Made by a program: the position numbers and the translations under genes. Below the pieces are notes generated by a model, which had not been told where the DNA came from, made no database searches, and saw only the letters and a list, made by a program, of their open reading frames with translations. DNA of 64,000 nucleotides. Origin: Tetradesmus obliquus. Its lineage: Eukaryota > Chlorophyta > Chlorophyceae > Sphaeropleales > Scenedesmaceae. The stretch covers positions 3,038,001 to 3,102,000 of the forward strand of contig CP126203.1 of the NCBI GenBank assembly GCA_030272155.1, given 5' to 3'. The stretch's first letter is position 1; every line of letters begins with the position of its first letter. This document shows, in pieces, positions 6,101 through 64,000 of the stretch.

Positions 6101-9100
6101 TCACATGTACGGGTCCCAGCCCGCGCCCCAGTTGTCTGCTGAGCCATCTTGTGCTGCCCTCAGCGCCGACTTGATGTCTTGCTGGCGGAAGATGGTGGGG
6201 TAGCTGCAAATTCATGGCAACAGGCGCAGCAGCAAGAATGGCAGCTCAAAAGTGAGGGCAGGAGGATTGTGTTTCATGCCATGCCAATTACTTGATGGCC
6301 TGCTGGCGGAAGATGGTGGGGTAGCTACAAGTGCATGGTAACAGGCGCAGCAGCAAGAATGGCAGCACATGGATAAGTGTCTGATTATTGTGCTTCACAT
6401 TATCATGCCAAGTCAGCAACTTGATGTCCTGCTGGCGGAAGATGGTGGTGTAGCTGCAAGTGCATGGCAGAGTCGATGAAAGCTGTACAGCTATCACATA
6501 CGCAGCTGCGCACTCCCCCCTACTACTTATGTAAGGTAACATAACATATTCAAACACATTATTGGCGGGGGCCCGTAGGTGCTACTTAAGCGGACGTTTC
6601 GAAACTTGGCTTGTGGCTACTGTCGTTGTTTTCGCATCGCAGGTTCGATTCGTAACGTTGATGTTAACGTTCAACAAAAATAGAGTACATTAGGTCCCTG
6701 CCACATTGATGCGCACAATCGTATGGCCTGAACGCATTGAATCACACTTGTGTGTTTTGTGCTGCTTGGATGAAACCAATTTATCTTTCACAAAACGTGG
6801 TTGATGTTATGCAATATTGCGTTTCGTGCGGTCAATGTCCACTTACAACGAGCGGAAAGGGGCCAACTTCCTGTATACGCAACAGAACGCCCAATGTATA
6901 CCGAACCAAAGATTGATGATATAACGTATAGAACGTATTCCACAGGATGGTTAGGGGAAATGCGCGTTGACACCAAAGTTCAAGACATCGTTCTGCTGGA
7001 ACTCTTGCTTTTCGGCGTGCTTACTAGGCACTGGAAATGCTGCATCACAGCTGCAGTAACTTGAAACAGCTGTTGAACAGCAGCCACTGCTGCGTATGTG
7101 TAATATCATGTACCGCCATTGCGTTCGGCACTGTATGTGCTGCCGTCGTGCTTCTTCATAAAAATTTCTTTGATAAGCTATCAAGAGCTGTTAAACGCGC
7201 TAAGCGGTATCTTCCTTTTCAGCAGTCATAATGTCGCGGGTGACACTCAGTGCAGTGGCTGCACAGCTTTGCCATACACGCGTGTCGAACACAGTGGTGG
7301 CGCTGCCGGTTTCGATCAACAACGAGTTGGCTATCACTTGATGGCTGATTCGATATCGCTTCATTGATCATGTTTCGCTGGCCGCTGACTCAGCTAGCTA
7401 CGTCAGCATAAGGCTCTGTCACCTTGTGCAGCTTCTTAGGGGGGGGGGGGGGGGGGGTAAGGTACTACCAACCCCCTAAGGGGGTGGGAGGCCAGGGTCG
7501 GAAGGGAGCTGGCTTAAACCCTTAAGCTAGGCATCCTCTTCTTCTAGTGGTGACCTTTCATTGCACTTTGCATATGCCTTTGCTTGACACCAACTGTAAC
7601 AAGCATTCTTATCCTTACACCCCTAAGCTAGCTTCACTACTGCTGAGGTATCAACTGCAGCACAACTTGCAGTAGGGCCCCGCCGAGTAAGCGTAGCCTA
7701 TAATAATGTGTTTAATCAAACACTCACCCCTGGTAGTATCCCATGGTGGCTTCATTGAAGGAGGGGTAGTTTGTGCCCACCCAGTTCTGCAGCAGAGCCC
7801 TTGCAAGCAGCATGCGGCGGCCACTGGCAGACGCAGGCGCTGCGCGCTTTGCAGTAGAGGTTGCGGAGGCAGCTGTAGCAGCTGGCGTCAGCAGGCCATC
7901 GACACCGTGCAGGATGTTCTGCACGCGGCACAGCACCACAGCAAGTGTTACTAATCCCTGCTACTAGCAGTGGTATAGCATAAGTGGTTCCATAGGTAGC
8001 AGTATCATCAGCAAGGACATAGGCGTTGCTGGCATGCTGTCAAACTGCAGGCAGCCATGTCATGTAACCTGGCTCTGCTGAAGCAGTAGCACCGCCATTA
8101 GTACAAGCAGCACCCTGGTGGCTGTTATGCCAGCACAACACCTTGCTACGTGTCCTAGCCAGTAAAACTGTAGCCAGACGGGTAGAGGGTGCGGAGCCCA
8201 GGGGCGCCGCCCTTGGCCACACACACCCTCTGAGCCTTAACTTACCCAGGAGCTGCAGAGCTGCCTGGGTAGTCACTCACTCACTCACTGTAGCCAGAGT
8301 TCCCTGCAAAGCTCATCATACCTCCTGCAATCACACCCTGCAGTGGCTCACCTTCCCGACGAAGATGTTGTAGATGTCCAGCTTTGCCTTGCTGCCGGAC
8401 TCAGGCACCACAGCCACCAGTTGCACAGCCTCCTTGCCTTTGCGGCTCCACGGCTGAGGCAGCGTGCTGAACATGCACAACAGAGTTTGCAGACAGGCGG
8501 CAGTGATCCAAGCAGCACAATGTGGTTATAATACAGTAGAAGGCCTTGGTTGCCCTTGCGCCTCCACGGCTGAGGCAGCGTGCTGCACACGGACACACAG
8601 GCAGCAACATCAGTAGTGAGCCAAGCACCGCGATGCCAGTGTTAGCACCGGGAGGCCTTGCAACGAAATTCAATGGTTGCTGCACAGCCTCCTTGCCCTT
8701 GCGGCTCCACGGCTGTGGCAGCGTGCTGCACACGGACACACAGGCAGCAACAACAGTAGTGAGCCAAGCACCGCGATGCCAGTGTTAGCATCGGAAGGCC
8801 TTGCAACGGTATTCAATGGTTGCTGCACAGCCTCCTTGCCCTTGCGGCTCCACGGCTGAGGCAGCGTGCTGCACATGCACAGCACAACACGGGCAGAAAG
8901 GCGGAAACAGCTATTAAAATGAGCCATCGCTGCATCATGGGCCATGAGCACCTGTCATGCCAACATGGCATATCTGGCTGAATGAACCAGCTGCCTTGCT
9001 CAGCTGCCGTGCCCTCCATGCTGCTTGGCGCACCTTGGCGTACACGTAATGTTATGTGTCACACGTTACAGGTTCTACACGTCGAAAGCAGGCAAGCCTG

Positions 9101-12280: not shown

Positions 12281-15200
12281 ATGCTGGGCAAGACGTTGAC
12301 CAACAAGCACGCCTGCGTAGGCAGCAAGACCGCAGGAGTCAAGATGGCCCCTGTGGCTCTGCGGGCGCCGAAGGTGAGCGCATTAACGATATGTTGCGTG
12401 TTACCTTCTTATTCTGCGAGATCAGCTGGCGTGGCGTGACATTTCGTGATTGGAGTGTGCACTGCTGTCAACCGAAGCACCCGGTGCAAGCTAAGCCCAT
12501 CAGCAGCCAATTTCCTCCTTGTACACCTTGGCGCACTGATGAAACTCACGATTGACCTGCAGGTGGCACGGCAGTGCGTTGTCAGGGCCAGCATGAAGCC
12601 AGAGGCAGCAGGAGCAGCAGCGCGCGCTGTCTCCACTGCTGCAGCAGCAGTTGAGGCACCTGTGGAGTCTGCCAGCGCAGCAAAGCTGTCTTCAGTGGAG
12701 ATGTGGAACGGCAACAAGCGGCTGCAGACGCAGGTGCTGCCACTGGCGCAGAACACCATTGCCATCCGCTCCCTTGACTATGACAGGGACAGGTTTGACA
12801 TTGAGTTCGGGTGAGTTGTGTTGGATACTGGATTTGATCCTGAATGGAGCTGCAGCGTATTTTCAAGGGGTTCGCCCTCTCCCGGCCTGCTGGTGCTAGA
12901 CAGACCGGTGCTGCTCAGGCTCCGCAGTGCTGCGGGGGCAGGTGCTGCAGTGCTGCAGCATGCGCTTGTGCAAAGACGGGCTGTGCATAGAACACTAGGC
13001 AGTGCGCAGCCTTACAGCATGTCATTCAGCGCGCAGTTGTAAGGGTTGCAAGCCCAGCAGCAGCACTCAGGTAGCCCGTGCTGCAGGTGGCGAGCCAAAC
13101 AATCAAGCATACTCGCTTCCGGCAACTCAGCAGTGCTGGCTGCAGCAACAGGGGTGGTGCTACTCTGGCGCAGCAGCAACGTTGTTCCGCTGTCGTGTCG
13201 CGCCACTTGACAACAGCTCTTGCACACAATGCCTGAAGCTGCAGTGGTACAGGAGCATGCAGTAACTTCCAGCATTGTTGCAGGAGAGCTATTTTGGCAG
13301 TTGCCTGCAGCTATGGCGCGTGGTTGTGTGATAGCTGGCATTTCTGGTCAGTCTAACAATGCTGCAGATGTTGTGCACACCCGGTTAAAGAATAACAGTA
13401 TAGCGCACGTCTCGCACCAAGCAAGGCACAAGAACAGCAATGCTGTTGAGCAAGTGTCGACGTGCGTACACTCACCGGTATTGTTGCAATGACTGCTACT
13501 GCTGCCCTTCTTGCTGCTGCCGCTGCTGCTGCTGCCGCTGCTGCTGCTGCTGCTGCTGCTGCAGGCTTGAAAAGGGCACCACCTACAACGCGTACCTCAT
13601 CTTTGGCGAGACGCATACCGCGCTGGTGGACGCGAGCCACGAGAAGTTCAGCAACCTGTTCATCGCCACACTCAAGCAGGAGCTGGCTGCAGCGGGCCGC
13701 AGCATCGACTACATCCTGGTGCGCAGCTGTTGCAATGTTTATTTTGTGGGTTTGGTGTGGTTATGACTCTACTTACGCTAGTTAAACAGGAGGTGGTGGC
13801 GTTGATTATGTCCTGACGCGCAGGCGGCGGTACAGGCCGGTCTTTTGCACCGATTGGTTACGTTCTTGGGGATCGGACAGCCATGAGAAGTCAGCAACCT
13901 GTTCATCGCCACACTCGAGCAGGAGCTGGCTGCAGCGGGCCGCAGCATCGACTACATCCTGGTGCGTGTGTCGGCTTGTTTTTGCATACGCGCATGTTGT
14001 TTTGTGCATAGAGTGTATTGCTGGTTCGCGCCGGCAAAGCAGGAGCTGCTGCAGCGGGCTGCAGCATCGGCTACATCCTGGTTTGCAGCTGGCTGTTTTG
14101 GGTTCGCGCATGGATACAAGCATGAGGTGTGTTGCTGCTTCGTGCTGGCAAAGCAGGCGCTGGCTCATTAGGCCGCAGCATCAACTACATCTGGGTGTGC
14201 AGCTGGCTGATGTGGCCTGGCTCATGCGTATGCGTTGGTTTGCAAGCGTCGTTGTTACAGCAACAGTACAAGGGAAGTTGCCTGCTTCTCAACACCGCCA
14301 TGCAAATATGAGTATGACACGCTGTTGATGCGCTTTCAGGTGTCCCACACTGAGCCTGACCACTGCTTCTTGGTGCCTGCCGTGCTGGACCTTCTAAAAC
14401 ATTTTAGGAGTCAATATACATAACAGCGCTTGCTCTGTTTGTGCTTGTTGCAGGTGTCCCACACCGAGCCTGACCACTCCTTCCTGGTGCCTGCCGTGCT
14501 GGACCTACTAAACTATTTAGAAGTCAATATACATAACAGTGCTTGCCTGTTTGTGCTTGTTGCAGGTGTCCCACACGGAGCCCGACCACTCCTTCCTGGT
14601 GCCTGCCGTGCTGGATCTGTACCCCGAGGCCACTGTGGTGGCCAGCAAGGTGGCAATCGCCTTCCTGAAAGGCCTCACCAACAGGTGCGACAACAGTCAG
14701 TACCAAGCTCGCAGGCCTGAGCACCGGTTTCTGCTGCTCTTGTAGTGCCGCGGACGATTTTTGGAGGCAGGGTGTTGTCTGTGGTGCAATGCTAGCAGTT
14801 TTGCATGTGTGTGAGGCCTCCAGGCGACTGTGGTGGCCAGCAAGGTGGCCATCGCCTTCCTCAAGGGACTCACCAACAGGTGCGGGACACAGCCTAGAGT
14901 GTATCTTGTGTTTTCACTTTCCCGCTGAAGGCTCTCAGCACAGTACCATGCGGGAAGCTTGGGGCTCCTGGTTGCTGAGGTGGGCAGCAGCGCATGGGTA
15001 CACAAGCTCGAAGTGGCACTCAACCTGCACTGGCCAGACACCATGTTCTGACTTGTAATTTGCTGTTTTTATTGTCTGCTGCTTCCACACTTGACTTGCA
15101 GGGACTTCAACAACCAGGCAGTCGAGGGTGGCGACAAATTCGACCTGGGCGGTGGCCACGTGATGGAGTTTGTGTTGTTTTCAAACGCTTGCCTGCTGTT

Positions 15201-17964
15201 TTTACTTTGCTTTGCAGGGACTTCAAGAACCAGGCAGTCAAGGGCGGCGACAAAATCGACCTAGGCGGCGGCCACGTGATGGAGTTTGTGATGGCTCCCA
15301 ACCTGCACTGGCCTGACACCATGTTCTCCTACGACCACGCCACGGGTGTGATGTACACCTGCGATGCATTCGGCATGCACTACTGCACGGAGGAGCCTTT
15401 TGACACAGACGTGCAGGCCATCATGCCCCACTACAGGTGAGCACTGCAATGCAAGTTGGCGCGTGTTCTGCACCGAAGGCATTGGGACTGTTGTGCCATC
15501 TGTGCCGTGCCATTGCCAGCTCCAACCTGGCCTCATGTCAATCACTCGGTGCCGCCTATGCACCCCGCAGGTTCTACTACGACTGCCTGATGAAGCCCAA
15601 CGCCAAGTCAGTGACCACTGCGCTGCGCAAGGTGAGGCGCAGCTTGAAGTGCGAATGAAGCCACATGCAGATGATGAGTTACATGCAGGCATGCTGGGTC
15701 TTGCAGGAAACGCGCTTGTGCCCACCCTGTTCAAATATGCAATTGAATATTGACAGTGCACTTCAGCCCTTCTAGGGTCACAACTGAGCAGCATGCAGGC
15801 AAGCTTGCTTATGTAATGTTCACAGGATACACCCGCGCACGCATGCGTTGTCCTCTGCTGCTGCTAGTTGCGCACCTGTGCAGCTGCACACACACACATG
15901 TTCACTCGGTTGCTGCCGCCTCTCAGCTGTTGCTGCTGCTCCTGCTGGTTCAATCTTATAGGTGGCTGACCTGAAGTACAACACGCTGGCCAATGGCCAC
16001 GGCCCCATCCTGCGCTACAATGTGGAGCAGCTGGTGACCAACTACAGGGACTGGAGCATGGCCGTGGAGAAGGGTAGCACACAGGTGCGCATGGTGTGGT
16101 TGTGGCTTTGTGCCGCCTTGCCGCCGGCATAAGAGCTGCTGGCAGGTGCCTGGCGGTGGAGAAGCGCAGCACAGGCAACTACTGGAAGATGTGAAGCACG
16201 GCTGCTGCTGTGCTGCAGGTTGCCGTGCTGTACGTTGAGGACTGTGGCTACTCCAACAGGCTGAGCCAGACACTGGCCAAGGGCATCGCCAAACACTGTT
16301 GCTGCTGCTACTGCTGGTGCTGCTGGTGGCCGTGCTGTACGCTGCTGACCATGGGTACTCTTGACAGGCTGAGCCAGACACGGGCCAAGGGCATCACCAA
16401 CAACTGCTGCTGCTGCTGTTGCTGCTGCGCCGCAGGTTGCTGTGCTGTGCGCTGCTGACTATGGCTACTCTGACAGGCCCCAAAGAAGGCCCATAGACAA
16501 TTATACTCAAACCCCACTGCTGCTGCTGCTGCTGCTGCTGTTGCGCAGGTGGCGGTGCTGTATGCCGCCGACTATGGCTACTCTGACAGGCTGAGCCAGA
16601 CACTGGCCAAGGGCATCACCAAGGCTGGCGTGAAGACTGAGATGGTGGACGTGCTGTCAGTGGACCCCCAGGTGAGGCCCACGTGCAGGAACTGGATGCA
16701 AGTCGGTTAAAGTAAGCAGCAGCAGCAGCACCAAGCAGGCAGTCACCACAGCATCTCGTCACCACGCGCAGCTGCTGGTCAATGGTCATTCATTGCTGCT
16801 GGACAGCTTTTCAAGGCTGACACATATACCTTTTGGGTGTCGTAACAGTCCCATGATGCTGCTGCTGCTACTGCTGCTGCTGTAGGAGCTTGTGGGCATC
16901 ATGGCTGCCAGCAAGGGCCTGGTGCTGATGGCGCCACCCTCGGGCAACACAGAGGCCAAGAGGACCATGGCTGCGCTGCTGTCGGCAATCAAGCCCAAGA
17001 CAAAAGTGCGGCTCTCAGTAGGCTGGTGTCTGTTACTAGTCTTCTGTTGATGAATCGTGCTCGCCAAGCAGTGGGACACGTGCTGTGTTGGTCAGACAAC
17101 TGCCTGCGCTTTCTGTGGCTGTATGCTATGCTAGCATCTGATCTGCTGCTGCTGCTGCCGCCGCAGGTCATTGTGGCAGACTCCTATGGCGGCTCCGATG
17201 AGCCTGTGGACACGCTGGTGGCTGGCCTGCTGGGTGTGGATGCACAGGTGAGCCTGGTGCCAGAAATGCCTCATAGTTAAGCTGTTGCTGATAGGGTGAA
17301 AGTTCTGGAATGTCGTGTGTGGTGACAGCTGCAAATAATCCAGCTTTCATCAATGTGAGCTGTGCGGCTGTGTGGCTGTAGCTGGTCAGAGAGTACTGTC
17401 CGCCTTTGTGCATGTGCAGGTGCTGGGTGATGCGCTGCGCGTGAAGGAGGAGCCCACACACATGCTGTACCAGGCCTTCGAGGAGGCGGGCACTGACCTG
17501 GCACAGGTGAGGCATTGTTTTTGTTGCATGAAGTTTGCAATATACACATGCTGTATATGCATGACCAACACGCATGCCGTACCAGGCTCTTGAGCAGGCA
17601 GGCACTGACCTGGCACAGGTGTGTGTGACAGTGTCTGTTGTACAGTAGTTTCGTATGCTTTAATGGTGGCACATGCCGAACCAGGCCTTTGAAGAGGCAG
17701 GCACTGACCTGGCACAGGTGAGGCGCATTGCTTTCTGCTGCTGCTGCTGCTGCTGTGTTGTGGTTTCCGCATGACTGGCATTTGTGAGCTGTGCCAGGTG
17801 TTGTGCAAGGGCATTCTGCAGTGGTTTGCTGGGTGAGTCTGTGTAGCTGCTGGCGCTGCTGCATGCTTTGCATAGTTCACAGGTCATCCTGCTGGTATCT
17901 GCGCAGTGCTCACGCAAAGTTCAGCTCCCGCGCTCTCCTGCAAGCAACACACTGCTCAACCATC

Positions 17965-18000
<36 letters not shown>

Positions 18001-20343
18001 GCCAGGCGCTGACCACCAAGGAGGTCATTGCGCGCAAGAAGGCGGCCATGTGTGGCGAGGTGGCCAAGGCACTGGGGCGCATCAGCAGCGGGCTGTACAT
18101 CGTGGCGGCTGCTCAGGACAACGCACGCAGGTGCGTCTAGACCAGGTGTTTGATGCTGTTGCTGCTGCTGGCGTGTTGTGTTTGGTGGTGTGGCGAGGTG
18201 GCCAAGGGGCTGGGTTGCATCAGCAGCGGGCTGTACATCGTGGCGGCTGCTCAGGACAACGCACGCAGGTGCGTTTAGGCTGGAGCTTAGATGCTGGTGG
18301 TGCTGTTTGTTTGCTGGTGGTGATGGGCTGCTGCTGTACAGTAAAACCTCGAAGTAACGACACTTGAAGTAACGACTTTCGCATAGTAACGACACGTCAG
18401 GCTGTCCCCAAAGTGCTCGATTTGCCGCAAAACTGTGCAAAGTAACGACAAACACATAGTAACGACAATTTAGGCTGTCCCCAGTAGTGTCGTTACTTCG
18501 AGGTTTTACTGTAGTATTATCGGGGCTGGTACATCGTGGCGGCTGCACAGGACAACGCACTCAGGCACGCTGACTGAGTTTGTTTAGTGCTGTTGCTGCT
18601 GTGGCGTGTGATGTGCCGCATCAGCAGAGGGCTGTACATCGCGGCGGCTGCACATGACAACGCCCGCAGGTGCGCGGGAGTTTGTATGTATCTGCTGCTG
18701 GTTCTGATGCTTGGCTCCTGCCCTGGCATGTTCATGTTACGTGCTGTTGCAAGCTGCGCTGACATATCCGACTGCTGCTGCTGCTGCTGCTGCTGCTGCA
18801 GTGGCATGGTTGCCAGCTGGGTGAGTCAGGCCAGCTTTGAGCCGCTGGGCCTGACCATCTCCGTGGCCAAGGACAGGGCCATCGAGAGCATGATGCAGGT
18901 ACGGGGCATTGCAGCATTTGCTTTCAAGCAACATTGTAGCTAGCAGGCAGCAGCAATGTGTGTGGCCAAGGATAGGGCCATTGAGAGCATGATGCAGGTG
19001 GGCTGCTGCTGCTGATGTGCTGCTGTGATGCAGCACCAGACAGAGGTTGACAACCAGCTGGCAAGGCACTGCAGCAGGCGTGCAGCACAGCACTTTTTGA
19101 GGCGGCGGAGTGCACAGCATGCAGCAGGTTTTGCAGTGTATGCACAGCATGCAGCAGGTTGTGCAGTATGCGGCCGCACAAAGCATGCGCAGCATGAAGG
19201 AACATGCTGCTTGATGGTTAGACAGGCATACCAGGGCAACAGCCTGGCACGTTCGCAGCGTTACGCAACCTTTAAAACAGCACATAGCCATACCCGACAC
19301 ATTGTAGTTTGGCGCAACTGCTCTGACACACATTTGTAAACTGTATGTGGTTATAGGCGGGCAACAAGTTTGTGCTCAACTGCCTCACCACCCTCTGTAG
19401 TTATCTCTAGGTGTACGGTGTACCCTCAACTCCCAACTTGATTTGCTGAGGCTGTGCTGTGTGCTGTGTGCTGCTGCCTGTTGCAGGTGGGCGACAAGTT
19501 TGTGCTCAACTGCCTGGGTGAGAAGGGCGCGGACCCCATCATGAAGCACTTTCTCAAGCGCTTCGCTGCGGGAGAGGACCGCTTCCAGGTGAGGCCTGAG
19601 CAAGAATACGAGTGGAATTTGAATCAGATCTGAGACGTGTTTTTGATTGGTGTTGGACCCCATCATGAAGCACTTCCTCAAGCACTTCGCGGCAGGAGAG
19701 GACCGCTTCCAGGTAAGGCCCGCAGCAATCAGGCGAAAGTGGAGTAGATTCAGATTCCAGCTGTGCTTTGCTTGGTGCTGGATGTCACCTGTGTAGGACG
19801 TAGGTGAAGACTGCAGCCAGGCGAGGCCTGCAGCCAGAGCTTTGATGATAACTTCATCATCACAAATGCATCTGCATCTTCCGCCCTGTGTGTTGCGCAG
19901 GGCGTGGAGTGGTTCCCTGCCTGTGGCAACCAGGGCCCAGTGCTCAAGGATGCAATCGCCTACATGGAGTGCCAGGTGGTCAGCCGTGCACACCAACCCC
20001 ACCCCTGTCACGTGTGTCGTTTTCTTTTGTGCTGCGCAGGGCATGGAGCGCTGTCGTGCCTTCGCACTCACTACTTTCATTTAACAAGAACAGCTCTGTG
20101 TACTGAACCCCCGCATCTCCTGCACGCCCTTTCTGTGCTGCGCAGGGCGTGGAGTGGTTCCCTGCCTCTGGCAACCAGGGCCCTGTGCTGAAAGATGCAA
20201 TTGCCTATATGGAGTGCCAGGTGGTGAGTCGCATGGAGACGCCAGACCACTGGGTCACCTACGCACACGTGACCGGAGGCGAGGTGATGAACAGCGACGA
20301 GCGCACCGCAGTGCACCGCCGCAAGGTCGGCAACTACTACTGA
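12281..20343 (+). CDS. FLVB: Plastid flavodiiron protein, FLVB (Flv3-like)
   Basis: Exons: 12281-12373, 12563-12810, 13565-13718, 14566-14684, 15218-15436, 15571-15631, 15962-16084, 16549-16671, 16886-17005, 17167-17247, 17420-17506, 18006-18130, 18802-18898, 19487-19588, 20146-20343; 650 codons, all phases closed. FLVA/FLVB reduce O2 to water using photosynthetic electrons and protect photosystem I. The first 50 or so residues look like a transit peptide (Lys/Ala/Val-rich). The metallo-beta-lactamase-like domain has the full diiron ligand set: H168, E170, D172, H173 (HTEPDH), H235 (HWPD), D254 and H311 (NGHGP). A flavodoxin-like domain starts near residue 340 (AVLYAADYGYSDR). A flavin-reductase-like domain fills the end (ASWVSQASFEPLG). 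Canonical ligands favour the Flv3/FLVB branch over the Flv1/FLVA branch, which has substitutions. Many introns contain partial copies of the adjacent exons. Confidence 0.93.
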
Positions 20344-25077: not shown

Positions 25078-25111
<34 letters not shown>

Positions 25112-49826: not shown

Positions 49827-52800
49827 ATGGGTTGCCCGCTTACTATGGGCGGCAGCTGCTGCCCCTGGGCGGCAACTGTCGCTATTCTCGCATGCGGGTT
49901 AGCCGCTTTGGCTTACCTGCCCCCTTTGGAGCCGGCTGTCCACGTAGGAGCACCTGCTCGCACCCAACTGCAAACCGAGGCTACCCAGCCCTTGGACACT
50001 CCGGCCTACACCCGGCGTTCTATTGAGTTCCCATGCGTGGATGCAACCTGTGAGGCCTGGCTCTACATGCCCAAGGGCTTGCCTGAGGGAGAGCTGCCCC
50101 CTGTTGTGGTCATGGCGCATGGCATGGTGCGCTACTGCTGATTACGATGATGGTAGGGAGAAACAGCAGCCTTGTGCAGCTGTACAGCATATGTATGTCT
50201 TTTTCACCTGATTTTGAACGTGTATGAGCAGTCCAGGTGTCTTGACTAGCTGTGGACTTCATCCTGCAACTTTCATGTCGTTGTACTGCCAACTGACTTT
50301 GCCCTGTTGCTGCTGTTGCTCTTTTGTAATGCCTTTCACTGCAGGGAGGCCAGAAGGTGGGGCTGATGCGTATCAACAATTTAATTTTCCTGCAGCAGTT
50401 ACAACAGCAGCAGCCATGCGGGCCACTGAATTTGGCGATATCAGACAGTGCAGATCATGCAGCAGGCAGTACAGTGCAACCGCCTTGGTCAACAGCAGCA
50501 GCTAGTTGCCTGGCCACCTAGCGCCACTATGTTTAGAGCAGTAGTGTGTTTCCTATCACACAGCATACACAGACTGCAGCAAAAGTAGCGCTATGCAGTG
50601 CTGAAGCACAGCCACGCCAGCAGCACCTGCCCAGTTGCAGGAACACGCATGTGCGCACTGGCTGTTGCCATGTAACGGGACCACCAACAAACACTGTAGG
50701 CCGGTTCCTTGTTGATCAAGAGCTCCCTCATCACCACTCACGCCATGCAATGGCCGCACGTGTGCTGCCTCGCCCTCTCCTGCAGGACTTCGGCCTGCAC
50801 AAGTACGCCGAGAACTTTGCACAGAACAGCATGGCAGTCTTCGTGTTTGACTACCGTGGCTGGGGAGGCTCAGGCGGCGAGCCCCGCCACTGGCTATCAG
50901 CCAAGCGTCACATGGCAGACTGGCGTGCAGCAATCGCCTATGTGCGCAGCAGCATGGCAGGCAGTGTTGATATCGACAGGCTGTGCTTGTGGGGCAGCAG
51001 CTTTGCAGGAGGACATGTACTGGTGGTGGGCTCAGAGCCAACCATTGCACCGCACATCACTGCTATCGTGTCACAGGTGCGTGCTCTTTTCGCACACAGT
51101 ATGCGTGGTTCAAGCAAGAATAAGGCAGGAGGCAAGCGGTGCAGCAAGATGGGTGTGGTAATAGGGCTTATACACTGCTGCAGCGCTGTGCCAGGCCCTG
51201 TCCTGCAAGCAGCTTCCCTACCATTCCTTTCCAGCACTCCGCCTGATGCACCTCAGCACGTGCGCGTGTTCGCCACGAAGCAGCAGCATGGCTCCCTTCC
51301 ACCCCACCGTATATCACGCACTTGCCTCACGTGGTCATGCCAAGACCAAAAGGCAGGGCTGACTAATTCCTCCTCACATGCATCAAACACACACCACACA
51401 TGCCCAACCTGCCGCAGGTGCCCAACCTGGACGCCGCCGCCAGCACCAAGACCTCCATCAAGCAGCGCGGCGTGCCCAAGTCGCTGCGCATGTTGGCAGC
51501 CGGCCTTGTTGACTTGCTGCGCACCGCTGTGGGCCGCGAGCCGCTGTACCTGCCTCTGGCTGGGCTGCACGGCTCGCTGGCGTTCATGCAGATGACCCCA
51601 AGCGAGCTGGAGCGCTACCACGCCAACCACCCCAAAAACCCGCAGGTGCGCACTTTGCAGTCTTGTTTTTTGTTTGTTTTATATTGTTGTATCCTGAGAA
51701 TGCACACTATTGGAAAAAGACTACGACAAGTGACAACGGTGGGCCGCGAGCCGCTGTACATGCCGCTAGCTGGGCTGCACGGCTCGCTGGCGTTCATGCA
51801 GATGACCCCAAGCGAGCTGGAGCGCTACCACGCCAACCACCCCAAAAACCCGCAGGTGCGCACTTTGCAGTCTTGTTTTTTGTTTGTTTTATATTGTTGT
51901 ATCCTGAGAATGCACACTATTGGAAAGAGACTACGACAAGTGACAACGGTGGGCCGCGAGCCGCTGTACATGCCGCTAGCTGGGCTGCACGGCTCGCTGG
52001 CGTTCATGCAGATGACCCCAAGCGAGCTGGAGAGCTACCACGCCAACCACCCCAAAAACCCGCAGGTGCGCACTTTGCAGTCTTGTTTTTTGTTTGTTTT
52101 ATATTGTTGTATCCTGAGAATGCACACTATTGGAAAAAGACTACGACAAGTGACAACGGTGGGCCGCGAGCCGCTGTACATGCCGCTAGCTGGGCTGCAC
52201 GGCTCGCTGGCGTTCATGCAGATGACCCCAAGCGAGCTGGAGCGCTACCACGCCAACCACCCCAAAATCCCGCAGGTGCGCACTTGCAGTTGTTTCTTTG
52301 TTGTTATCTTGTGATGCTTGATCCTGACGGTACACTCTGAACCTGCGACGCGAATCACGGGCACTACCACGCCAGCCACCCCAAGAACCCACAGGTGCGC
52401 ACGGGGTAGATTGTGCCATGCTGTTTGCGGTGCGTCGCGCACTTGTATGCACTCTTACAAGCCACGCTGTTGTACCACAGTTGGCTATGCTGCTGTACCA
52501 CAGTTAACTTCCGCTGCCTGAGGGGAGATGCAACACATGCTGCAGAGCCAGAAGATTGCTTCTCGGGCACCCCCCATCCCCTGGCCGTTCATCGTGTTCA
52601 ACAATGCACTCTCTTAGCTGCCTTGCTGCTGTCAAAGTTATGCAGCGCACATCGTCAAAACTGTGGCTGGAAGACCTTGGTGCGCGCAGCACAAACTGCC
52701 TTGGTCCTTGTGCTTCCTTGCTTTGTGTTCTGCTCGCTGCTGCACTTCCACTCCTCGTGCCTCTGGCATTGCTTCTCCATCCATGTCTCAACTCGTGGCT

Positions 52801-54106: not shown

Positions 54107-54228
<122 letters not shown>

Positions 54229-55217: not shown

Positions 55218-58200
55218 CTAACCACGCATCCAAAACGGCAGCCTCTTTGCTGCAGGGCTGCCTGAGGCAGCAACATCAGAGTTCACATCCCTACTCCTGG
55301 CAACAGCAGCACCTCCTTTTGAACCTGCAACCACAGCGTCAGCCACGCTGCCAGCTGCAGCTGCAGCAACAGCGTCCTTGCTAGCAGCCACATCAGCAGC
55401 AGGAGCATCAGTAACACCAGCAGCAACTGACACAGCAGCACCCCTGCCAGCAACCACCACAGCATCAGACTGCTGCTGCTGCTTGACGCTGTCAGCAGCA
55501 GCAACCACGCTGGAGGTACTGCCGACAAGTACATGGTCAGCAGGAGGGCCAGCAACAACACCAGACTCAGCATCATGATGCTGATCAGCTGCTGCACTAC
55601 CAGCATCGCCACTGCTGGGCAGCTCAGGTGCAGCAGCTGCTCCCTTATCTGCATTTAAGCTTTCTGGCACTGTCACCGCTGCAGCATCGTCAACTGTACC
55701 AGCAGCAACAGCTGCACCATCGGCGCCGGCAGCAGCAGCACCTATACCACTGCTGCTGCTGCATTCCGCTAGGTTCGAAAGCCCCACCTCAGCTGCCCAC
55801 GCCGCCCCGTCTGCCTTGCCGAGGCTAAACAGATAATCCAGATCCGCCTTTGTCCCCGGTGTCAGTGCCATCGTATACGCCAGCTCGAGCGGCGTGTACT
55901 TGCACTTGTTATATTTGCCGGGATAGATATCTCCCGGCTGCGGCGCCGGGGGCTCGCTCGGATCAAACCAGCGCGAGCTCGCGATGTCGAGTACGTTCTC
56001 GATCGCGCGCACGCTCGGGCTGTCGAACATGCTGCGGAGGCTGCTCAGGGTACCTTCCTTGGCCATGAGGGGGCCAGGGAAGCGGGAGGACAGTCGCACA
56101 CAGACAGCGGCTCCAGCAGGGCATGGCATGGGGTTGCTGTGCAGAGGTGGGGAGGGACGGTGTCCAACAAACAGCAGCAGGCAGGGCAGCCAAGCATGTT
56201 AGTGGCAGGGCTCAAAGGCGAGAGGGCAGGGCAGCGCATCGGAAGAGCGGAGGTGGAGGCAGCAGGCAGGGCAGCCAAGCATGACAGTGGCAGGGCTCAA
56301 AGGCAACAGGGCAAGGCATTGGGTTGCTGCGCGGATGAAGAGAGACGGAGGAAGCAGCAGGCAGGGCAGCCAAGCATGTTCGTGGCAGGGCTCATAGACG
56401 AGCGTGATGCTGAAGCATGAAGCTGTGTTATGTCAAGCACTGCAGCACATGCAGAGGGAGGCTGGCCTGTACATGCTAGCAGCGATGCACAGTGTGCGCG
56501 CGCTGTTTTCAGCTATGCCATGCTCTCTGCCAGCCATGCAGTAGCTACGCAAATGAAGCTACACAGGTGAAGCATACAGAGCACGCTGCGTGCTGATACA
56601 AATCATGTTGCTTGCAGATAACTTGCCTGTAGAAGCCCTCATAGGCCGGCATGCCTTGGTACTCAGTGGCGAATGAGTTGAGGCCGCTCCAGTAGGGGAT
56701 GTACCAGGTGGCCACAATGCCCTCCACAAACGCCTGCAGCAACGCATATCATGCAAACACAGCCGGCGCATTGCAATAGCCGACGTAAATCTGGCTGTGC
56801 GGCGTGATGCTGCGCAAAGGAATGATACATACAGGTGGCAACAATGCCCTCCACAAAGGCCTGCAGCAAGGCATGTAATGCAGTGTAGTGCAGCAGGTTG
56901 GCTGATAAGGGTTGACATGGCACTGGCTGGCGGTTAGTACATGCGCAGGAGCGTCACAACAATACATGTAGCAATACTGCCATACACAGAACCTGCGCCT
57001 AGCCAATGCAGTGCAGATGGCCAGCAGGTTGCAGATGGCACTAGCAGTGCTGTTCAAAACAGAGGCCAAAGACTCCGAAGCAAACGCATGAAGCAGCAGG
57101 AAACAGGACTGCCTCTTGTGCTGCAACAGTTCGTGCTGCATGCGCTGCTGGCGGAAAACCCGTGCCACCGCCAAAGCTATAGCCAAGTACTACGCCAACG
57201 CTATAGCCAAGTACTAGTAAATACTTGGCAGCAGCTGCACCAGGATTGCCATACATTCCTGTCACTGTCACACATTCTTTGTCGACAGTACTGCTGCTGT
57301 TTTTGACTCTGCAGGCATTCACAACGCAGCTGGGTGGCCACACTGCCGGCACGTCAACTCACATCTGCATCGCTGCTGTTGACTCTGCGCGGCGTAGACC
57401 CAGCAAAGTTGGACCCTCCGCGTGCGATGTGTATCTTCGGGTGCCCTTCCGATACATAGATGTCTGTGCTGTTGTGGCAGCGCTCCAGCAGTGAAGCGTT
57501 TGATGCTGCTGGCATTAGCAGAGTCTTCAAACTGGGTCCCATCATGCTTGCTAGTGTTCCAGCACACATGTTTCTGGACCTGCAGAGAGCTGCTGTTGTC
57601 TGCACTGCAGGCATGATGTAGCCTTCAAAATCTAAGCCTAGGCAGGATGCTGCTGCTGCCACTGAGCCGCCTGACACTGCTCCAATGGGTGTACTGCCGG
57701 GGTTGATCACGCCAACCTTTTGAAGTGCCCAGATGACGCCAAAGTACCTGACGCAAACACAGGCAAGGATGTAAAACTGCTGGATCGCTGTTTTGGTCGT
57801 TTGATGTCGGTGCCCGTATGAGAAGGGGTGGCAAACCCATAAATCTTTTCGCTGCCAGTTTCGTGTGCAGAGCAAACAAAGCCCATGCTCTGACAGGGAT
57901 TCGCTGCACGCAGCAATGTGCTTCTTCCACAATGCTTTTACATGGGGTGTGCAGCACGCGTCACAGCACACAGTGACTGGGTGTGTGCTAGAACGGCTAC
58001 TTGTGTGGGCTGGAGTAGCCAAAATTCAAGCAACTATCGCGATGCAACATTCAGGACGACTCATGTGCGTTGCTTAGGATCCAACGCAACCTTGAGACAG
58101 CATACACACATGCCATGCTCCGCAAGCAGGCATGCAAGCATGTGACAGGCCTGTGCTGAATGCTGTACGCTCTCACCATGGCATCAGCCAGCCAGAATCT

Positions 58201-59491: not shown

Positions 59492-59530
<39 letters not shown>

Positions 59531-59558
59531 CCAGCAGCAGCAACAGCAGCGCCAGCAG

Positions 59559-59605
<47 letters not shown>

Positions 59606-61759
59606 GTTCAACAGCAACAACCAGCAAGCAACCAGCGGCAGCAGCAGCAATGCGAACGAGCAGCCAGGCAAGGTCAAGCGGGCTGCGCCAGCAGGGCAGG
59701 AGCAGCAGCCTTGGTATGCTGCTGCCTGGCACTGGTTCCGCAGCACTGTGTGGGGCACTCCAGTGGACATCATGGAGCTGGGGCCGCCTTGGACAAAGTG
59801 GCCAGGTGGGCAGTGTGTTATTCTGTATCGCTTCACGTTGTGGTGACATGCATCGCAGTTGTCGCACTGCTGCCGCTTGCAGCACGTGTGGTGCGGCCTG
59901 CGCATTACGGGCTGTAGGTCAAACGTGTCAGCTGCGCGCGTGGCAGTGAAGGCCGATGGGTTTGTATGTTGATGCTAGTGCACATGCTGTGTGGGGCACG
60001 CCAGTGGACATCATGGAGCTGGGGCCGCCTCGGACAAAGTGGCCAGGTGGGCAGTGTGTTATTCTGTATCGCTTCATGTTGTGGTGACATGCATCGCAGT
60101 TGTCGCACTGCTGCCGCTTGCAGCACGTGTGGTGCGGCCTGCGCATTACGGGCTGTAGGTCAAACGTGTCAGCTGCGCGCGTGGCAGTGAAGGCCGATGG
60201 GTGTATATGTTGATGCTAGTGCACATGCTGTGTGGGGCACTCCAGTGGACATCATGGAGCTGGGGCCGCCTCGGACAAAGTGGCCAGGTGGGTGTGAAAA
60301 CACGTGTCAGCTGTGAAAGTGGCAGTGAATTGTGTTTGTGTTTCCAAGTTTTGAGTATAACTGCTGTGTGGGGCACTCCAGTGGACATCATGGAGCTGGG
60401 GCCCCCTTGGACAAAGTGACCAGGTGGGTGTGAAAACACGACAGAACTGCTGGTTTCTGGTGCTGTTGTATTGTGCATGTGGCAATGCTGCCGCTTGCAG
60501 CATGTCTGATGCTACCTGCGCATTCCGGGGCTGTAGGTACACGTGTCAGCTGTGAAAGTGGCAGTGAATTGTGTTTGTGTTTCCAAGTTTTGAGTGTAAC
60601 TGCTGTGTGGGGCACTCCAGTGGGCATCATGGAGCTGGGACCTGCTTGGACAAAGTGGCCAGGTGGGCAGTATGTTATGTTCTCTGCTGCATTATGCACA
60701 AGCAACCTGCATTACGTATGCAGCGCTGTTGCTGCAGCTTGCAGCACGTGTGATGCATTCATGGGCTGTAGGTGTACTTGTCAGCTGTGCGCGTGGCAGT
60801 GACGGCTGATGGGTTTGTATGTTGATGCTAGTGCAAGTGCTGTGTGGAGCACTCCAGTGGACATCATGGAGCTGGGGCCGCCTTGGACACAGTGGCCAGG
60901 TGGGCAGTGTGTTATTCTGTGCCGCTTCACGTTGTGGTGACATGCATCGCATTTGTCACACTGCTGCCGCTTGCAGCACGTGTGATGCGGCCTGCGCATT
61001 CTTCAGCTGTAGTATATTTGTCAGCTGTGCGCCTGGTAATGAACGCTGATAATTTTTCATATGCATATGTTGATTTATCAGTTGATTTATCAGTATAATG
61101 TACGTGCATGTGCTGTGTGGGGCGCTCCAGTGGACCTCACGCAGCTGGGGCCTCCTTGGATAAAGTGGCCAGGTGGGTTGACCTGGTTTTGCTGTGCGCA
61201 TCTAGAGTGATGCTGCCTTATGCGCATACTGCTGTTGTTCTGTCGTGCTGTGCCTGTGCAGGCTACCGCTGTTGCAAGCGCTACTGGTAGTACTGGCTCT
61301 GCTGCCGCATCGGCGGCGGCTGCCGCTGCTGTGATGGTTTCTTGCGTGCTGGTCGCACGCAAATCACAATTTGCTGAACTACACCAACGCACCATGGCTG
61401 CTGCTGCTGCTGCTGCTGCTGCTGTCTTGCAGATTATGACCGGCTGAACAACACCAATGCACTCATGGCAGGGCTGTGGGCAAGCCTGTCTGAGGCAGTG
61501 AGCCAGCAGCTGGTGCTCATCTCCTGCTGCTGCTGCTACTGTCTCACCACAGACTACAATCGCCTCAACAACACCAATGCGCTGATGGCAGGGCTGTGGC
61601 AAAGCCTATCTGAGGCGGTGAGCCAGCAGCTGGCGCTCATCTCCTGCTGCTGCTGCTGCTACTACTGTCTTGCCACAGACTACGATCGCCTCAACAACAC
61701 CAACGCGCTGATGGCAGGGCTGTGGCCAAGCCTGTCTGAGGCAATCAGCCAGCAGCTGG

Positions 61760-61843
<84 letters not shown>

Positions 61844-62885
61844 TTACCATAGACTATGACCGTCTCAACAACACCAATGCACTCATGGCAGGGCTTTGGG
61901 CAAGCCTGTCCGAGGCAGTGTTCCATCAGCTGGTGCTCATCTCCTGCTGCTGCTGCTTCTACTGCTGCTGCTGCTGCTGCTGCCGTCTCACAGACTATGA
62001 CCGTCTCAACAACACCAATGCGCTTATGGCAGGGCTGTGGCCAAGCCTGTCTGAGGCAATCAGCCAGCAGCTGGTGCTCACTGCTGCTGCTGCTGCTGCT
62101 GGTGCTGGTGCTGCTGCTGCTGCTGCCGTCCCGCAGACTATGATCGCCTCAACAACACCAACGCGCTTATGGCAGGGCTGTGGCCAAGCCTCTCCGAGGC
62201 AGTCAGCCAGCAGCTGGTGATCACTGCTGCTGCTGCCCCTGCCATGGTTTCGCACGTGCGGTCCTAAGCATAACTACTACCTTCTGAGCAACACCAACAC
62301 AGAACCACTGCTGATGCTACCCGTCTTGCAGATTACGATCGCCTCAACAACACCAATGCGCTTATGGCAGGGCTGTGGCCAAGCCTCTCCGAGGCAGTCA
62401 GCCAGCAGCTGGTGCAGGCCATGGCGCCCGGCCTGATGCAGCAGGCTGCTAAGGACTACGGTGCTGGCTACCTGACTGACCTCAAGCTGGTGCAGTTTGA
62501 ACTGGGGGAGGTGCGAGGCTGGTGCTGCTCTGCTTCACTGTGTTGATTGTGACCGGTTCTAAGTGTGGTTGCGCATGTGCATGGTGTTAATGTTTGTAAA
62601 AGTTTGCACAACAGCACACAGCGCTGCCTGTGTGTACAAGCAGCAGCAGCTGGTGCAGGCCATGGCGCCTGGCCTGATGCAGCAGGCTGCTAAGGACTAT
62701 GGTGCTGGCTACCTGACTGACCTGAAGCTGGTGCAGTTTGAACTGGGGGAGGTGCGAGGATGGCGCTTTGCTGCTTGTGCCTGGCGCTTCGCCGTCGCTG
62801 CTACGACTGCTGCGGCTGCTGTGCCAAGTGCAGACATCACAAGGGCTTGATGGCTTGAATGTGTAGCATCATCTTGCGTTTCTTC

Positions 62886-62917
<32 letters not shown>

Positions 62918-64000
62918 GCCATATGCAGATTGCGCCGCGGCTGGATGGCATGAAGGTGTACGATCAAATAAGCGATGAGCAGCTGATGCTGGAGGTGGCG
63001 GCGAGCTGGGGCAGCAGCAGCAAGGTGAGGATGCAATTACTTTGGCTGTGCTGCATGACAGTAATGTGTTGATGAGTTGGCAGGGGCAGCAGCACTGGCA
63101 GCTGATGCTGCAGGTAGCGGTGAGCTGGGGCAGCAGCAGCACGGTGAGGGCGCATTTCTGTGTCTCTCACCACCTAGTAGTAGTAGCAGCTGCAGCAACA
63201 GCTGTGGTGAGGTTGAGGGTTGTGGTGGGCAGCTGATGCTGGGGGTGGCGGCGAGCTGGGGCAGCAGCAGCAAGGTGAGGATCTAACTGTGCTGCCTGAC
63301 ACTACTCCAGCTGTGCTGCTCAAAACTATTGTGGTGATGGGCTGGAAGGTGCAGCAGTCTTAGCAGCTGATGCTACAGGTGGTGGCGAGCTGGGGCAGCA
63401 GCAGCGGGGTGAGGGCTCAATTGGTTGATGTCGATGGTGTAATGATGGGCTGTCATGTGCAGCAGCTTTGGTGGGGGCATAGGATGATGGTGGTGGGGAT
63501 GCATGTTACAGCTGCAACGCTGAGTGGAGGTTAGGCTTGCAACGTTGATCATCATGCTGCTACTGCTGCTGCTGCCGATTCTGAACAGGTCGCCGTTGCT
63601 GCCACGCTGCAGCTGTTCGGGCACACGTTCTCCATCCCCCCCACCATTATGCAGCTACAGTATTTGTGGGTGCTTCATTGTTTGTGCTGCCACCATTGCC
63701 AATGCTGCCGCTGCAATAACACCATCCTTGCTGCTGCTGCTGCTGTTGCTGCTGCCTCGCAACAGGTCTCCATTGGCGCCACGCTGCAGCTGTTTGGCCA
63801 CACCTTCAGCATCCCTCTCACCGTTGAGAAGCTGCAAGTCCACGCCATCGCACGCATCAGCGCGCAGCCGCTGCTGCCGCACTATCCTTACGTCGGCAGC
63901 GTGGGAGTGAGCCTGCTGGAGCCTCCCCACATTGATTTTGAGCTGCCGCTTGGTGGGGTGGATGTGATGGCGCTGCCGATGCTGCGGGGGGCGGTGCGGC
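58838..64000 (+). CDS. SMP-domain (extended-synaptotagmin-like) lipid-transfer protein, N-terminal part
   Basis: Exons: 58838-58890, 59222-59805, 62332-62510, 62929-63024, 63766 to beyond 64000; phases agree. The first 200 residues are low complexity, with a long poly-Gln run (59489-59604). The SMP domain runs from about residue 212 to the edge: LNNTNALMAGLWPSLSEAVS, LKLVQFELGE, PRLDGMKVYDQ, LTVEKLQVHAIARIS, PYVGSVGVSLLEPPHIDFEL, GGVDVMALPML. This pattern is that of extended synaptotagmins and plant SYTs, which carry lipids at ER-plasma membrane contacts; C2 domains would be expected downstream, outside the window. No N-terminal membrane hairpin is visible, although WYAAAWHWFRSTVWG could bind a membrane. 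The 2.5-kb second intron is packed with copies of the flanking exons. Confidence 0.85.
59745..61172 (+). repeat. Seven copies of the end of SMP-protein exon 2
   Basis: The segment encoding VWGTPVDIMELGPPWTKWPG plus the CAG|GTGGG donor occurs near 59745-59805 (functional), 59988-60046, 60229-60290, 60361-60424, 60602-60664, 60839-60900 and 61111-61172. The first two repeat units are about 240 bp and nearly identical over their intron part as well. Later copies vary (for example VDLTQLGPPWIKWPG). Confidence 0.92.
61432..62420 (+). repeat. Seven copies of SMP-protein exon 3 start with (TGC)n spacers
   Basis: The acceptor and first 80 coding bases (DYDRLNNTNALMAGLWPSLS onward) occur at about 61436, 61552, 61678, 61851, 61993, 62136 and 62332. 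Only the last continues into the whole exon. Spacers are (TGC)n, reaching 24 units at 61771-61842. Units keep one open frame from 61465 to 62220, giving LNNTNALMAGLW... separated by poly-Cys when unspliced. Confidence 0.95.
62641..62754 (+). repeat. Copy of the end of SMP-protein exon 3
   Basis: About 114 bp encoding QQLVQAMAPGLMQQAAKDYG to VQFELGE and its GTGCGAGG donor, nearly identical to 62404-62518. No acceptor immediately precedes it, but CAGCAG at its start could serve as one. Confidence 0.9.
63094..63655 (+). repeat. Copies of SMP-protein exon 4 end and exon 5 start
   Basis: The end of exon 4 (QLMLEVAASWGSSSK and the GTGAGG donor) recurs near 63094-63147, 63229-63278 and 63363-63414. 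The start of exon 5 (ATLQLFGHTFSIP.T) recurs at 63587-63655 with a GAACAG acceptor, before the functional exon at 63766. Confidence 0.88.

What the first reader, a model, noticed from the sequence alone, without database searches (positions are those of the whole stretch)
6101..63655. Partial exon copies spanning splice junctions fill the introns of nearly every gene
In seven of the eight genes, pieces of exon adjoining a splice site are tandemly repeated inside the neighbouring intron: exon ends with their GT donor, or exon starts with their AG acceptor. The helicase has only a copied 3' terminal segment after its stop. The copies match only their own gene, range from near-identical to old, and number up to seven. 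Intergenic regions show little of this. Tandem duplication across an AG|GT junction is a proposed route for intron gain and growth. This window may show that process running repeatedly, with decoy exons as a by-product. It could also affect splicing regulation.
Basis: partly seen in the sequence, partly recalled or inferred. Interest (0 to 1): 0.88.

Follow-up and report, generated by a model that had tools for sequence, protein, structure and literature searches.

The report
Half-exon copies that lengthen algal introns
In the green alga Tetradesmus obliquus, short tandem duplications of about 120 bases that straddle an exon edge pile up as apparently unused half-exon copies inside introns, making the introns longer without changing the proteins.

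Summary
The window is Tetradesmus obliquus (C13 of a 104.66 Mb, 17-contig assembly). In three genes modelled from homologous proteins (FLV and SMP/E-Syt in or overlapping the window, Der GTPase elsewhere), 26 of 38 exons have partial copies beside them: 77 same-strand copies against 7 inverted. 71 of 77 run up to their own exon junction; none holds a whole exon. Nearest-copy spacing peaks at 120-130 bp in 254 kb. Local direct repeats cover 35,242 of 190,000 readable bases outside the window, with no local inverted ones. Introns with copies are longer (median 588 vs 263 bp).

Best reading: recurrent ~120 bp tandem duplication, kept when it straddles a coding/non-coding border because the outer splice site, or first stop codon, stays in use. 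This is intron growth, not intron gain. Copies decay with relaxed constraint (decoy-only changes N113 S64; real exon N3 S19), so they are mostly pseudo-exons. Young copies lie nearest the real exon. Whether duplications are directed to junctions beyond geometry is open (P 6e-6 to 0.3, by assumed ancestral intron length). New variant of a known kind.

The parts
12281..20340 (+). FLV flavodiiron-protein gene, 15 coding exons; 7 of 14 introns and the 3' end hold partial exon copies
   Evidence: spliced alignment to P0001 (last exon run on to the stop codon by hand); copies
13674..14226 (+). FLV exon 3 end plus donor (real exon 13565-13718), copies at 13879, 14037, 14151; each copy has a frame-shifting gap
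14334..14618 (+). FLV exon 4 start plus acceptor: copies at 14334 and 14448 before the real exon at 14566; period 114
14822..14884 (+). copy of FLV exon 4 end plus donor
15072..15177 (+). copy of FLV exon 5 start plus acceptor
16201..16622 (+). FLV exon 8 start plus acceptor: three copies before the real exon at 16549
17565..17734 (+). two copies of FLV exon 11 end plus donor
18188..18674 (+). three copies of FLV exon 12 end plus donor (one has lost GT), with a terminal-inverted-repeat element between them
18962..18999 (+). copy of FLV exon 13 end plus donor
19655..19782 (+). copy of FLV exon 14 end plus donor
19889..19986 (+). copy of FLV exon 15 start plus acceptor (7 synonymous, 1 nonsynonymous difference)
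20252..20629 (+). FLV coding end plus stop codon, period 126; copies in the 3' flank; the AAG|GTC pair could act as an AG|GT intron
51529..52402 (+). S33 hydrolase exon end plus donor, 3.7 near-identical units of 210 bp and one older copy
45406..46001 (-). acceptor plus exon start, five copies counting the one taken as real, spacing about 125
46139..46476 (-). coding end plus stop codon (by open frame) copied once
8422..8886 (-). acceptor plus exon start, four copies counting the one taken as real, spacing 116-143; taken as fasciclin gene
6169..6469 (-). acceptor plus exon start, three copies counting the one taken as real, spacing 121; taken as fasciclin gene
56705..56882 (-). acceptor plus exon start, two copies counting the one taken as real; patatin-like gene named by eye
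3157..3411 (+). helicase coding end and stop region copied once after the stop
59746..61178 (+). SMP exon 2 end plus donor: real exon end and six copies
61397..62415 (+). SMP exon 3 start plus acceptor: six copies before the real exon (62332-62510), most with a CTG tract
62644..62776 (+). copy of SMP exon 3 end plus donor
62976..63422 (+). SMP exon 4 end plus donor: real exon end and three copies
63555..63659 (+). copy of SMP exon 5 start plus acceptor

Best explanation
The T. obliquus nuclear genome undergoes frequent tandem duplication of DNA units of about 120 bp. Where a unit straddles an exon-intron border, the duplicate is silent: the outermost copy, still attached to the exon body and to the exon's other splice site, goes on being spliced. 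The second copy, a half-exon with one splice site, becomes intron sequence. The same holds at the stop codon, where the first stop ends translation and the copy lies in the 3' flank. Units inside an exon, or holding a whole exon, change the protein and are removed by selection. Repetition from the real exon edge builds arrays with young copies next to the exon and old ones further off; copies may also recombine with each other. The copies then decay under relaxed constraint. Net effect: growth of existing introns, with pseudo-exons as a by-product. Shown: copies, one-sidedness, unit length, nearest-youngest order, relaxed constraint, longer introns. Inferred: the selection filter, use of the outer site through exon definition, and the DNA event itself (for example fill-in repair of staggered breaks).
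For: Three genes, 38 exons: 77 same-strand copies vs 7 inverted; 71 of 77 reach their own junction, 0 of 77 hold 90% or more of an exon; 34 arrays (18 donor, 14 acceptor, 2 stop; a few are doubtful). Nearest-copy spacing: 161 values, 91 between 90 and 150 bp, highest bin 120-130, second rise at 240-260; similar spacing beside exons of 87 and 1025 bp and 696 bp. 215 local direct vs 0 local inverted matches in 190 kb; shuffled 0. Nearer copy more identical in 64 of 82 untied pairs, permutation P 2e-4. Real-exon-only changes S19 N3, decoy-only S64 N113. 21 introns with copies, median 588 bp, vs 14 without, 263 bp, P 3.7e-5. Stop-end copies in helicase, FLV, SMP and probably the 46 kb gene, none beside exon 1 in the three modelled genes. 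Exon-end pieces found once and not repeated in homologous proteins: FLV P0001 30 of 30; SMP P0121 25 of 26, 1 not found.
Against: Intron-only arrays are rarer than random placement predicts if ancestral introns were 200 bp or longer, which may mean direction to exon edges rather than a filter. Raw decoy-exon differences are more synonymous than a simple neutral-decoy model gives (third position 242 of 436 vs 0.43 expected), and exon parts outlive intron parts even between decoys; conversion or repeated copying from the real exon must be invoked. Only 11 of 63 copies hold a stop or a frame-shifting gap. A coarse coding-overlap test was weak in spread loci (46 of 92 arrays vs 40.8 expected). No RNA or raw-read data could be examined.
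Confidence: 0.68

Rival explanations
1. Junction-directed duplication: the event itself is tied to exon edges, through transcription, splicing, R-loops or nucleosomes phased on exon ends, and so produces units that nearly always contain a splice site or coding end.
For: In the three modelled genes, compact arrays (gap between copies at most 60) touch an exon in 21 cases and do not in 6; of the 6, three are made of decoy copies, one lies inside a terminal-inverted-repeat element (18337-18513) and 2 are intron-only. For 21 vs 2 and introns collapsed by 122 bp per copy, P is 5.7e-6. 5 of 66 compact arrays lie more than 700 bp from coding segments vs 11.7 expected, P 0.016. Nearest copies are youngest.
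Against: If ancestral introns were 150 bp or shorter the excess vanishes (P 0.1 to 0.3). Stop-codon ends are copied as well, with no splice site. Some arrays lie away from predicted coding segments.
Confidence: 0.17
2. Functional alternative exons: the copies are kept because they are sometimes spliced in, giving protein or expression variants.
For: Mostly synonymous differences in several arrays (SMP exon 3, FLV exon 15 upstream copy); pooled pN/pS 0.27; GT kept in 25 of 28 donor copies, AG in 21 of 27 acceptor copies; only 11 of 63 copies broken by a stop or frame shift. The C-terminus of P0001 (NCC) matches a decoy copy, while the 12 other FLV proteins printed end in YY.
Against: No copy holds a whole exon (0 of 77). 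Decoy-only changes are mostly nonsynonymous (113 vs 64). Several strongly synonymous copies lie at offsets that are not multiples of three (for example 245 and 224), so reading through to them would break the frame.
Confidence: 0.06
3. AG|GT tandem-duplication intron gain (Rogers model): duplicated exon segments become new introns.
For: At the FLV end a 126 bp duplication contains AAG|GTC twice, and splicing out one unit would give the NCC ending seen in P0001.
Against: The copies counted in the modelled genes lie inside introns or past stops, and 71 of 77 reach an existing junction or coding end; P0001 differs from the window protein elsewhere, so its ending may be an allele, a recombinant or a deletion. 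Donor GTCGGC is weak.
Confidence: 0.05
4. Assembly artefact.
For: A few arrays are 97-98% identical.
Against: 49 of 63 copies differ from the real exon by 5% or more, local copies are in the same direction, spacing is regular in 254 kb, and assembly errors do not as a rule create diverged copies.
Confidence: 0.02

Closest known systems
Junction-crossing tandem duplication in potato RdRp (PMC4974935; passages read)
   Same: Tandem duplication of an intron's 3' part plus the following exon's 5' part
   Different: One gene and one event that created a new intron; here dozens of copies in several genes, donor and acceptor side alike, with a typical unit length, and no new intron shown
Intron gain by tandem duplication of exonic AGGT segments (review PMC3443670; Drosophila cases PMC2891723; passages read)
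   Same: Short tandem duplication within genes that can be silent at the protein level
   Different: There the unit is exonic and becomes an intron; here it contains an existing splice site and lengthens an existing intron
Short tandem duplications from staggered breaks (Pol alpha-primase fill-in, PMC8355091; rice insertions as told in PMC7407515; passages read)
   Same: Short local direct duplications without a mobile element
   Different: No unit length near 120 bp and no exon-edge pattern in the passages read; mechanism in this alga untested
Introner elements (passage in PMC3443670; start of abstract of PMC9860276 in a listing)
   Same: Repeated sequence within genes, also in a green alga (Micromonas)
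   Different: Introners are dispersed families; two arrays searched here match only their own locus apart from CTG microsatellites
Tandem mutually exclusive exons (recalled)
   Same: Tandem exon-derived copies in introns
   Different: Whole exons with both sites under coding constraint; here half-exons with relaxed constraint

Membership tests
AG|GT tandem-duplication intron gain | duplicated segment is exonic and its two AGGT motifs become the new splice sites | tested here: not met
   copies hold an existing splice site and, when young, intron sequence; one ambiguous candidate at 20326-20451
AG|GT tandem-duplication intron gain | an intron at a position where relatives have none | not testable with these tools
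   no DNA of related algae was at hand
Junction-crossing tandem duplication (potato RdRp type) | duplicate crosses an exon-intron boundary | tested here: met
   71 of 77 copies reach their own junction or coding end; 32 of 34 arrays on a donor or acceptor side, 2 at stop ends
Junction-crossing tandem duplication (potato RdRp type) | the duplicate gives a new spliced intron | not testable with these tools
   no RNA reads
Introners | dispersed copies in many genes | tested here: not met
   whole-genome DNA searches with two arrays found only their own locus, apart from CTG microsatellites; only the best candidates are scored by that tool
Mutually exclusive tandem exons | each copy is a whole exon with acceptor and donor | tested here: not met
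   0 of 77 copies hold 90% or more of an exon
Mutually exclusive tandem exons | coding constraint on each copy | tested here: not met
   decoy-only changes N113 S64 overall; the SMP exon 3 array is less clear: decoy-only S5 N7, shared sites mostly synonymous
Break-repair tandem duplication | junction microhomology or filler at breakpoints | not tested
   breakpoints of multi-copy arrays could not be fixed

The most novel reading that the evidence does not exclude
A duplication process with a quantum of about 120 bp is aimed at exon edges in this alga, for instance through transcription, co-transcriptional splicing or nucleosomes phased on exons. Each exon edge then acts as a growth point that keeps feeding half-exon copies into the neighbouring intron, a directional mechanism of intron growth that exon-definition splicing makes silent.
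Probability: 0.16. Interest if true: 0.86.

Novelty: new variant of a known kind. Interest (0 to 1): 0.66.

Why it matters
How introns get longer seems less studied than how they arise. Here the growth steps are visible as one-sided exon copies of graded age, with a typical unit length, in an alga whose mean intron (462 bp, in another strain) was the longest of five green algae compared in one table (PMC5966456). If genome-wide, the process may account for a sizeable part of a 105 Mb genome. Most decoys keep splice sites yet appear to be ignored, so they are a natural test of exon-definition splicing; and they seem to mislead gene annotation. Sister strains would allow the duplication rate and target to be measured directly.

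Tried and rejected
Functional decoy exons: looked likely at first because the SMP exon 3 array and several others differ mostly at third positions (27 arrays, nearest copy: 85 of 137 at third position). Assigning changes to branches removed most of the support: the synonymous excess sits on the real-exon branch (S19 N3) and on shared sites (S24 N14), not on decoy tips (S64 N113) (a first version gave real S25 N3, decoys S55 N91). The decoy tips still have fewer nonsynonymous changes than the roughly 3:1 site ratio, so weak constraint or mis-assigned changes remain. Translation by splice-site extension was rejected because several offsets are not multiples of three.

Copies from a paralogous gene: rejected for two arrays; whole-genome searches found no second locus. 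Recombination among copies: suggested for SMP exon 3 (11 informative sites; P 0.0012, 0.042 and 0.093 for three window sizes; a first version with a faulty formula gave 0.0005). In one search SMP exons 13 and 9 gave 0.069 each with that faulty formula, and SMP exon 2 had too few sites.

Junction targeting: left open. Its input of 21 and 2 was first counted by hand; the recount gives 21 and 2 at a gap of at most 60, after leaving out three arrays made of decoys and one inside an inverted-repeat element. At a gap of at most 30 it gives 19 that touch an exon and 3 that do not (two made of decoys, one in that element).

Coding-overlap tests: (coarse, coding threshold 18): spread loci 46 of 92 vs 40.8, window 23 of 38 vs 13.4, flanks 13 of 24 vs 10.3. 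(compact arrays, spread loci): 32 of 35 vs 25.7, 28 vs 22.6 and 24 vs 19.7 at thresholds 12, 15 and 18. The coding caller was trained on the same 28 exons on which it found 26, and gave 3-5 false segments per 12 kb of shuffled sequence.

Inverted repeats inside two scattered short elements: none found. Pfam: references submitted (18 distinct, one given twice), 7 with a match at E<=0.01, some below the curated cut-off. The names epimerase-like and patatin-like are by eye; Pfam gave no match for them.

Papers: 10 searches (three name T. obliquus, one Scenedesmus). I saw the listings, and passages of seven papers; none described this pattern in T. obliquus. PMC12571836 has no occurrence of 'intron' or 'tandem repeat' in its held main text. 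Rogers, Hellsten, Gao and Lynch, and Vaughn and Bennetzen were seen only as cited there.

Rows dropped before counts: matches in which one triplet made up more than a quarter; gapped copies from the branch counts; locus L006 (all N); in gene models the FLV 16th exon of 15 nt (exon 15 was run on to the stop codon), and SMP exon 13 was extended to 70766. Doubtful copies kept in the 77 include several Der ones (a 16 nt piece; three at 69-78% identity) and FLV pieces of 27 and 29 nt.
Full report
What the window is. G000, the genome around the window, has 104,662,953 bases in 17 contigs. A protein listed as OEZ86_009229 of Tetradesmus obliquus comes from a contig of 5,023,913 bases, exactly the length of C13, which holds the window. 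PMC12571836 (passages) lists T. obliquus GCA_030272155.1 as 104.70 Mb in 17 sequences. So the window is from a chromosome-level assembly of this green alga.

Observation. The window compared with itself gives 80 direct and 3 inverted matches; 78 of 80 direct ones are within 3 kb. I modelled exons with a spliced aligner of my own: FLV (flavodiiron protein; 15 exons, from P0001, a protein from an unnamed contig of 3402 bases, too short to hold this gene's introns) and SMP/E-Syt (13 exons, from P0121 of Scenedesmus sp. NREL 46B-D3). For a place outside the window I took the Der GTPase gene in L008 on C4 (10 exons, from P0135 of another T. obliquus strain). That gene was chosen because its locus had many arrays and a recognisable protein, so it shows that the pattern recurs, not how common it is.

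In these 38 exons, copies of exon pieces in the neighbouring introns or flanks number 77 on the same strand and 7 on the opposite strand, the latter a measure of chance and low complexity. 26 of 38 exons have at least one. 71 of 77 reach their own junction; 0 of 77 hold 90% or more of the exon; the median piece is 60 nt. They form 34 arrays: 18 donor side, 14 acceptor side, 2 at the stop codon. A few of these, mostly in Der, are short or weak and may be chance. Other window genes show the same by reading the sequence: minus-strand genes at 6-9 kb (taken as fasciclin), 45-46.8 kb and 56.7 kb, and the hydrolase; the helicase only at its stop end.

Genome scale. Twenty 10 kb stretches (18 spread over 17 contigs, 2 beside the window; one reads all N) hold 215 local direct matches at offsets of 60-1500 and 0 local inverted; 35,242 of 190,000 readable bases are covered. 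Of the 17 readable spread stretches, 13 have at least one. The spacing to the nearest copy has a clear peak: of 161 values, 91 lie between 90 and 150 bp, the fullest bin is 120-130, and there is a second rise at 240-260. Ten block-shuffled controls gave none. Spacing does not follow exon size: 112 beside an 87 bp exon and 127 beside a 1025 bp exon, 118 beside a 696 bp exon. So the unit length looks like a property of the duplication, not of gene geometry.

Relation to genes. Results are mixed. Compact arrays overlap predicted coding segments in 32 of 35 cases in spread loci (25.7 expected) and 22 of 22 in window plus L003 (14.1 expected) at the loosest coding threshold; stricter thresholds give 28 vs 22.6 and 24 vs 19.7. 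A coarser test on merged arrays was weak in spread loci (46 of 92, 40.8 expected) and stronger in the window (23 of 38, 13.4 expected). Coverage is 19.8% near and 10.4% more than 700 bp from coding segments. Of 66 compact arrays 5 lie far from coding, 11.7 expected, P 0.016; one of these 5 is in fact in an SMP intron. The coding caller was trained on the 28 FLV and SMP exons and found 26 of them, so 'far' may still hide genes.

Do duplications seek junctions? A random 122 bp unit in these genes would span one junction or the stop in 33-35% and lie in an intron only in 33-39% of placements when introns are collapsed by the copies they hold. With 21 junction or stop arrays and 2 intron-only the excess has P 5.7e-6 to 6.6e-5; with ancestral introns of 200, 150 or 130 bp P is 0.004, 0.099 or 0.32 (recount). 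Introns without copies have a median of 263 bp, which favours the excess, but they may hold unrecognised old copies. I leave direction open. No copies lie beside exon 1 on its upstream side in the three modelled genes, against four stop-codon side cases, one of them by open frame only, and none at the Der stop. A tolerance filter predicts this: a second stop is harmless, a second start is not.

Are the decoys used? Fifteen-residue pieces from exon ends were looked up in homologous proteins: FLV in P0001 once in 30 of 30 and in P0002 in 27 of 30 (3 not found); SMP in P0121 25 of 26 (1 not found), P0126 13 and P0123 12 of 26 (the rest not found); Der in P0135 18 of 19 once and one more than once, P0137 15 once, 3 not found, one more than once. 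Raw differences between decoy and real exon are biased to third positions (103, 91, 242; pN/pS 0.27; 63 copies), more than a model with a neutral decoy and a constrained real exon (third fraction 0.43, sd 0.02). Only 11 of 63 copies hold a stop or a frame-shifting gap. Exon pieces also differ less than the adjoining intron pieces (medians 0.10 and 0.20, unrelated introns 0.258; intron larger in 47 of 61), also between decoys. Assigning changes in arrays with two or more gapless copies explains most of this: changes found only in the real exon are S19 N3, only in one decoy S64 N113, shared by several copies S24 N14. The real exon is strongly constrained, decoys are nearly free, and the shared changes are intermediate, as expected if copies are spawned repeatedly from a real exon that itself drifts at silent sites. 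In line with this, of two copies in one array the one nearer the real exon is the more identical in 64 of 82 untied pairs (permutation P 2e-4). One array, SMP exon 3, looks mosaic, with P from 0.0012 to 0.093 by window size. What remains unexplained is why exon pieces outlast intron pieces so clearly; conversion from the real exon is a guess. This also means that old duplications are seen only through their exon part, which inflates the impression that exons alone are copied.

Effect on introns. Of 35 introns in the three genes, 21 with copies have a median of 588 bp and 14 without 263 bp (P 3.7e-5), and length rises with copy number (Spearman 0.80). Total intron length is 19,326 bp, against 9,205 if all had the no-copy median. 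T. obliquus (strain UTEX393) was reported with a mean intron of 462 bp, against 230-302 bp in four other green algae, and 15.7% coding (PMC5966456, passages).

How it works. Shown: tandem, same-strand, one-sided copies with a typical unit near 120 bp, youngest nearest the real exon, relaxed constraint, longer introns. Inferred: the outer splice site stays in use because the real exon alone has both of its splice sites at exon distance (exon definition), so half-exon decoys are ignored; whole-exon or exon-internal duplications are lost by selection. The DNA event is unknown; fill-in of staggered breaks is the nearest described route (PMC8355091 and PMC7407515, passages), but no breakpoint test was made.

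A candidate for a new intron or for decoy use: the 12 other FLV proteins printed (13 of 120 fetched were looked at) end in YY, while P0001 ends in NCC, which is what the second copy of the FLV end encodes. Splicing from AAG|GTC in the first copy to AAG|GTC in the second would give exactly that; so would a deletion or allele in that strain.

Compared with the literature. The potato RdRp case (PMC4974935, passages) is the same kind of event, once, with a new intron. The AGGT model (PMC3443670, PMC2891723, passages) differs in its unit and outcome. In ten searches I found no account of this pattern in T. obliquus; most subscription-journal papers are missing from that library. I call it a new variant of a known kind: the event is known; the scale, unit length, one-sidedness and growth order are what seems new.

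Noticed in passing
window 20326-20466: The FLV terminal duplication carries AAG|GTC twice; P0001 from an unnamed source ends in NCC like the second copy, whereas the 12 other FLV proteins printed end in YY. Possible AG|GT intron or decoy take-over.
   Followed up: partly
window 58838-64000 and L003: The submitted gene model OEZ86_009229 (P0125, 460 aa) starts in about exon 7 of the SMP gene and lacks part of the large exon, so the arrays may have misled annotation; the homologue P0121 supports 13 exons.
   Followed up: partly
window 18337-18513: Element with perfect 28 nt terminal inverted repeats, TA at both ends and taacgac motifs, inside FLV intron 12 between decoy copies; looks like a small DNA transposon remnant.
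   Followed up: partly
window 31420-31497, 39492-39572, 41128-41193: A short scattered element of 60-78 bp at 94-99% identity in both orientations, unlike the tandem copies; possibly a mobile element fragment.
   Followed up: no
window 13493-13562, 61770-61842 and others: CTG tracts lie close before some acceptors, apparently as pyrimidine tracts, and recur across the genome (one search found dozens of places).
   Followed up: no
window 24592-34796: A gene with bacterial Ig-like domain matches (Big_9 above, Big_1 just below the curated cut-off); its 30340/30913 repeat is a whole-domain repeat, not a half-exon copy.
   Followed up: partly
L012 4378-5478 and 8387-9335: Spread locus whose coding-like segments include the same peptide piece about five and four times; looks like further half-exon arrays, not modelled.
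   Followed up: no
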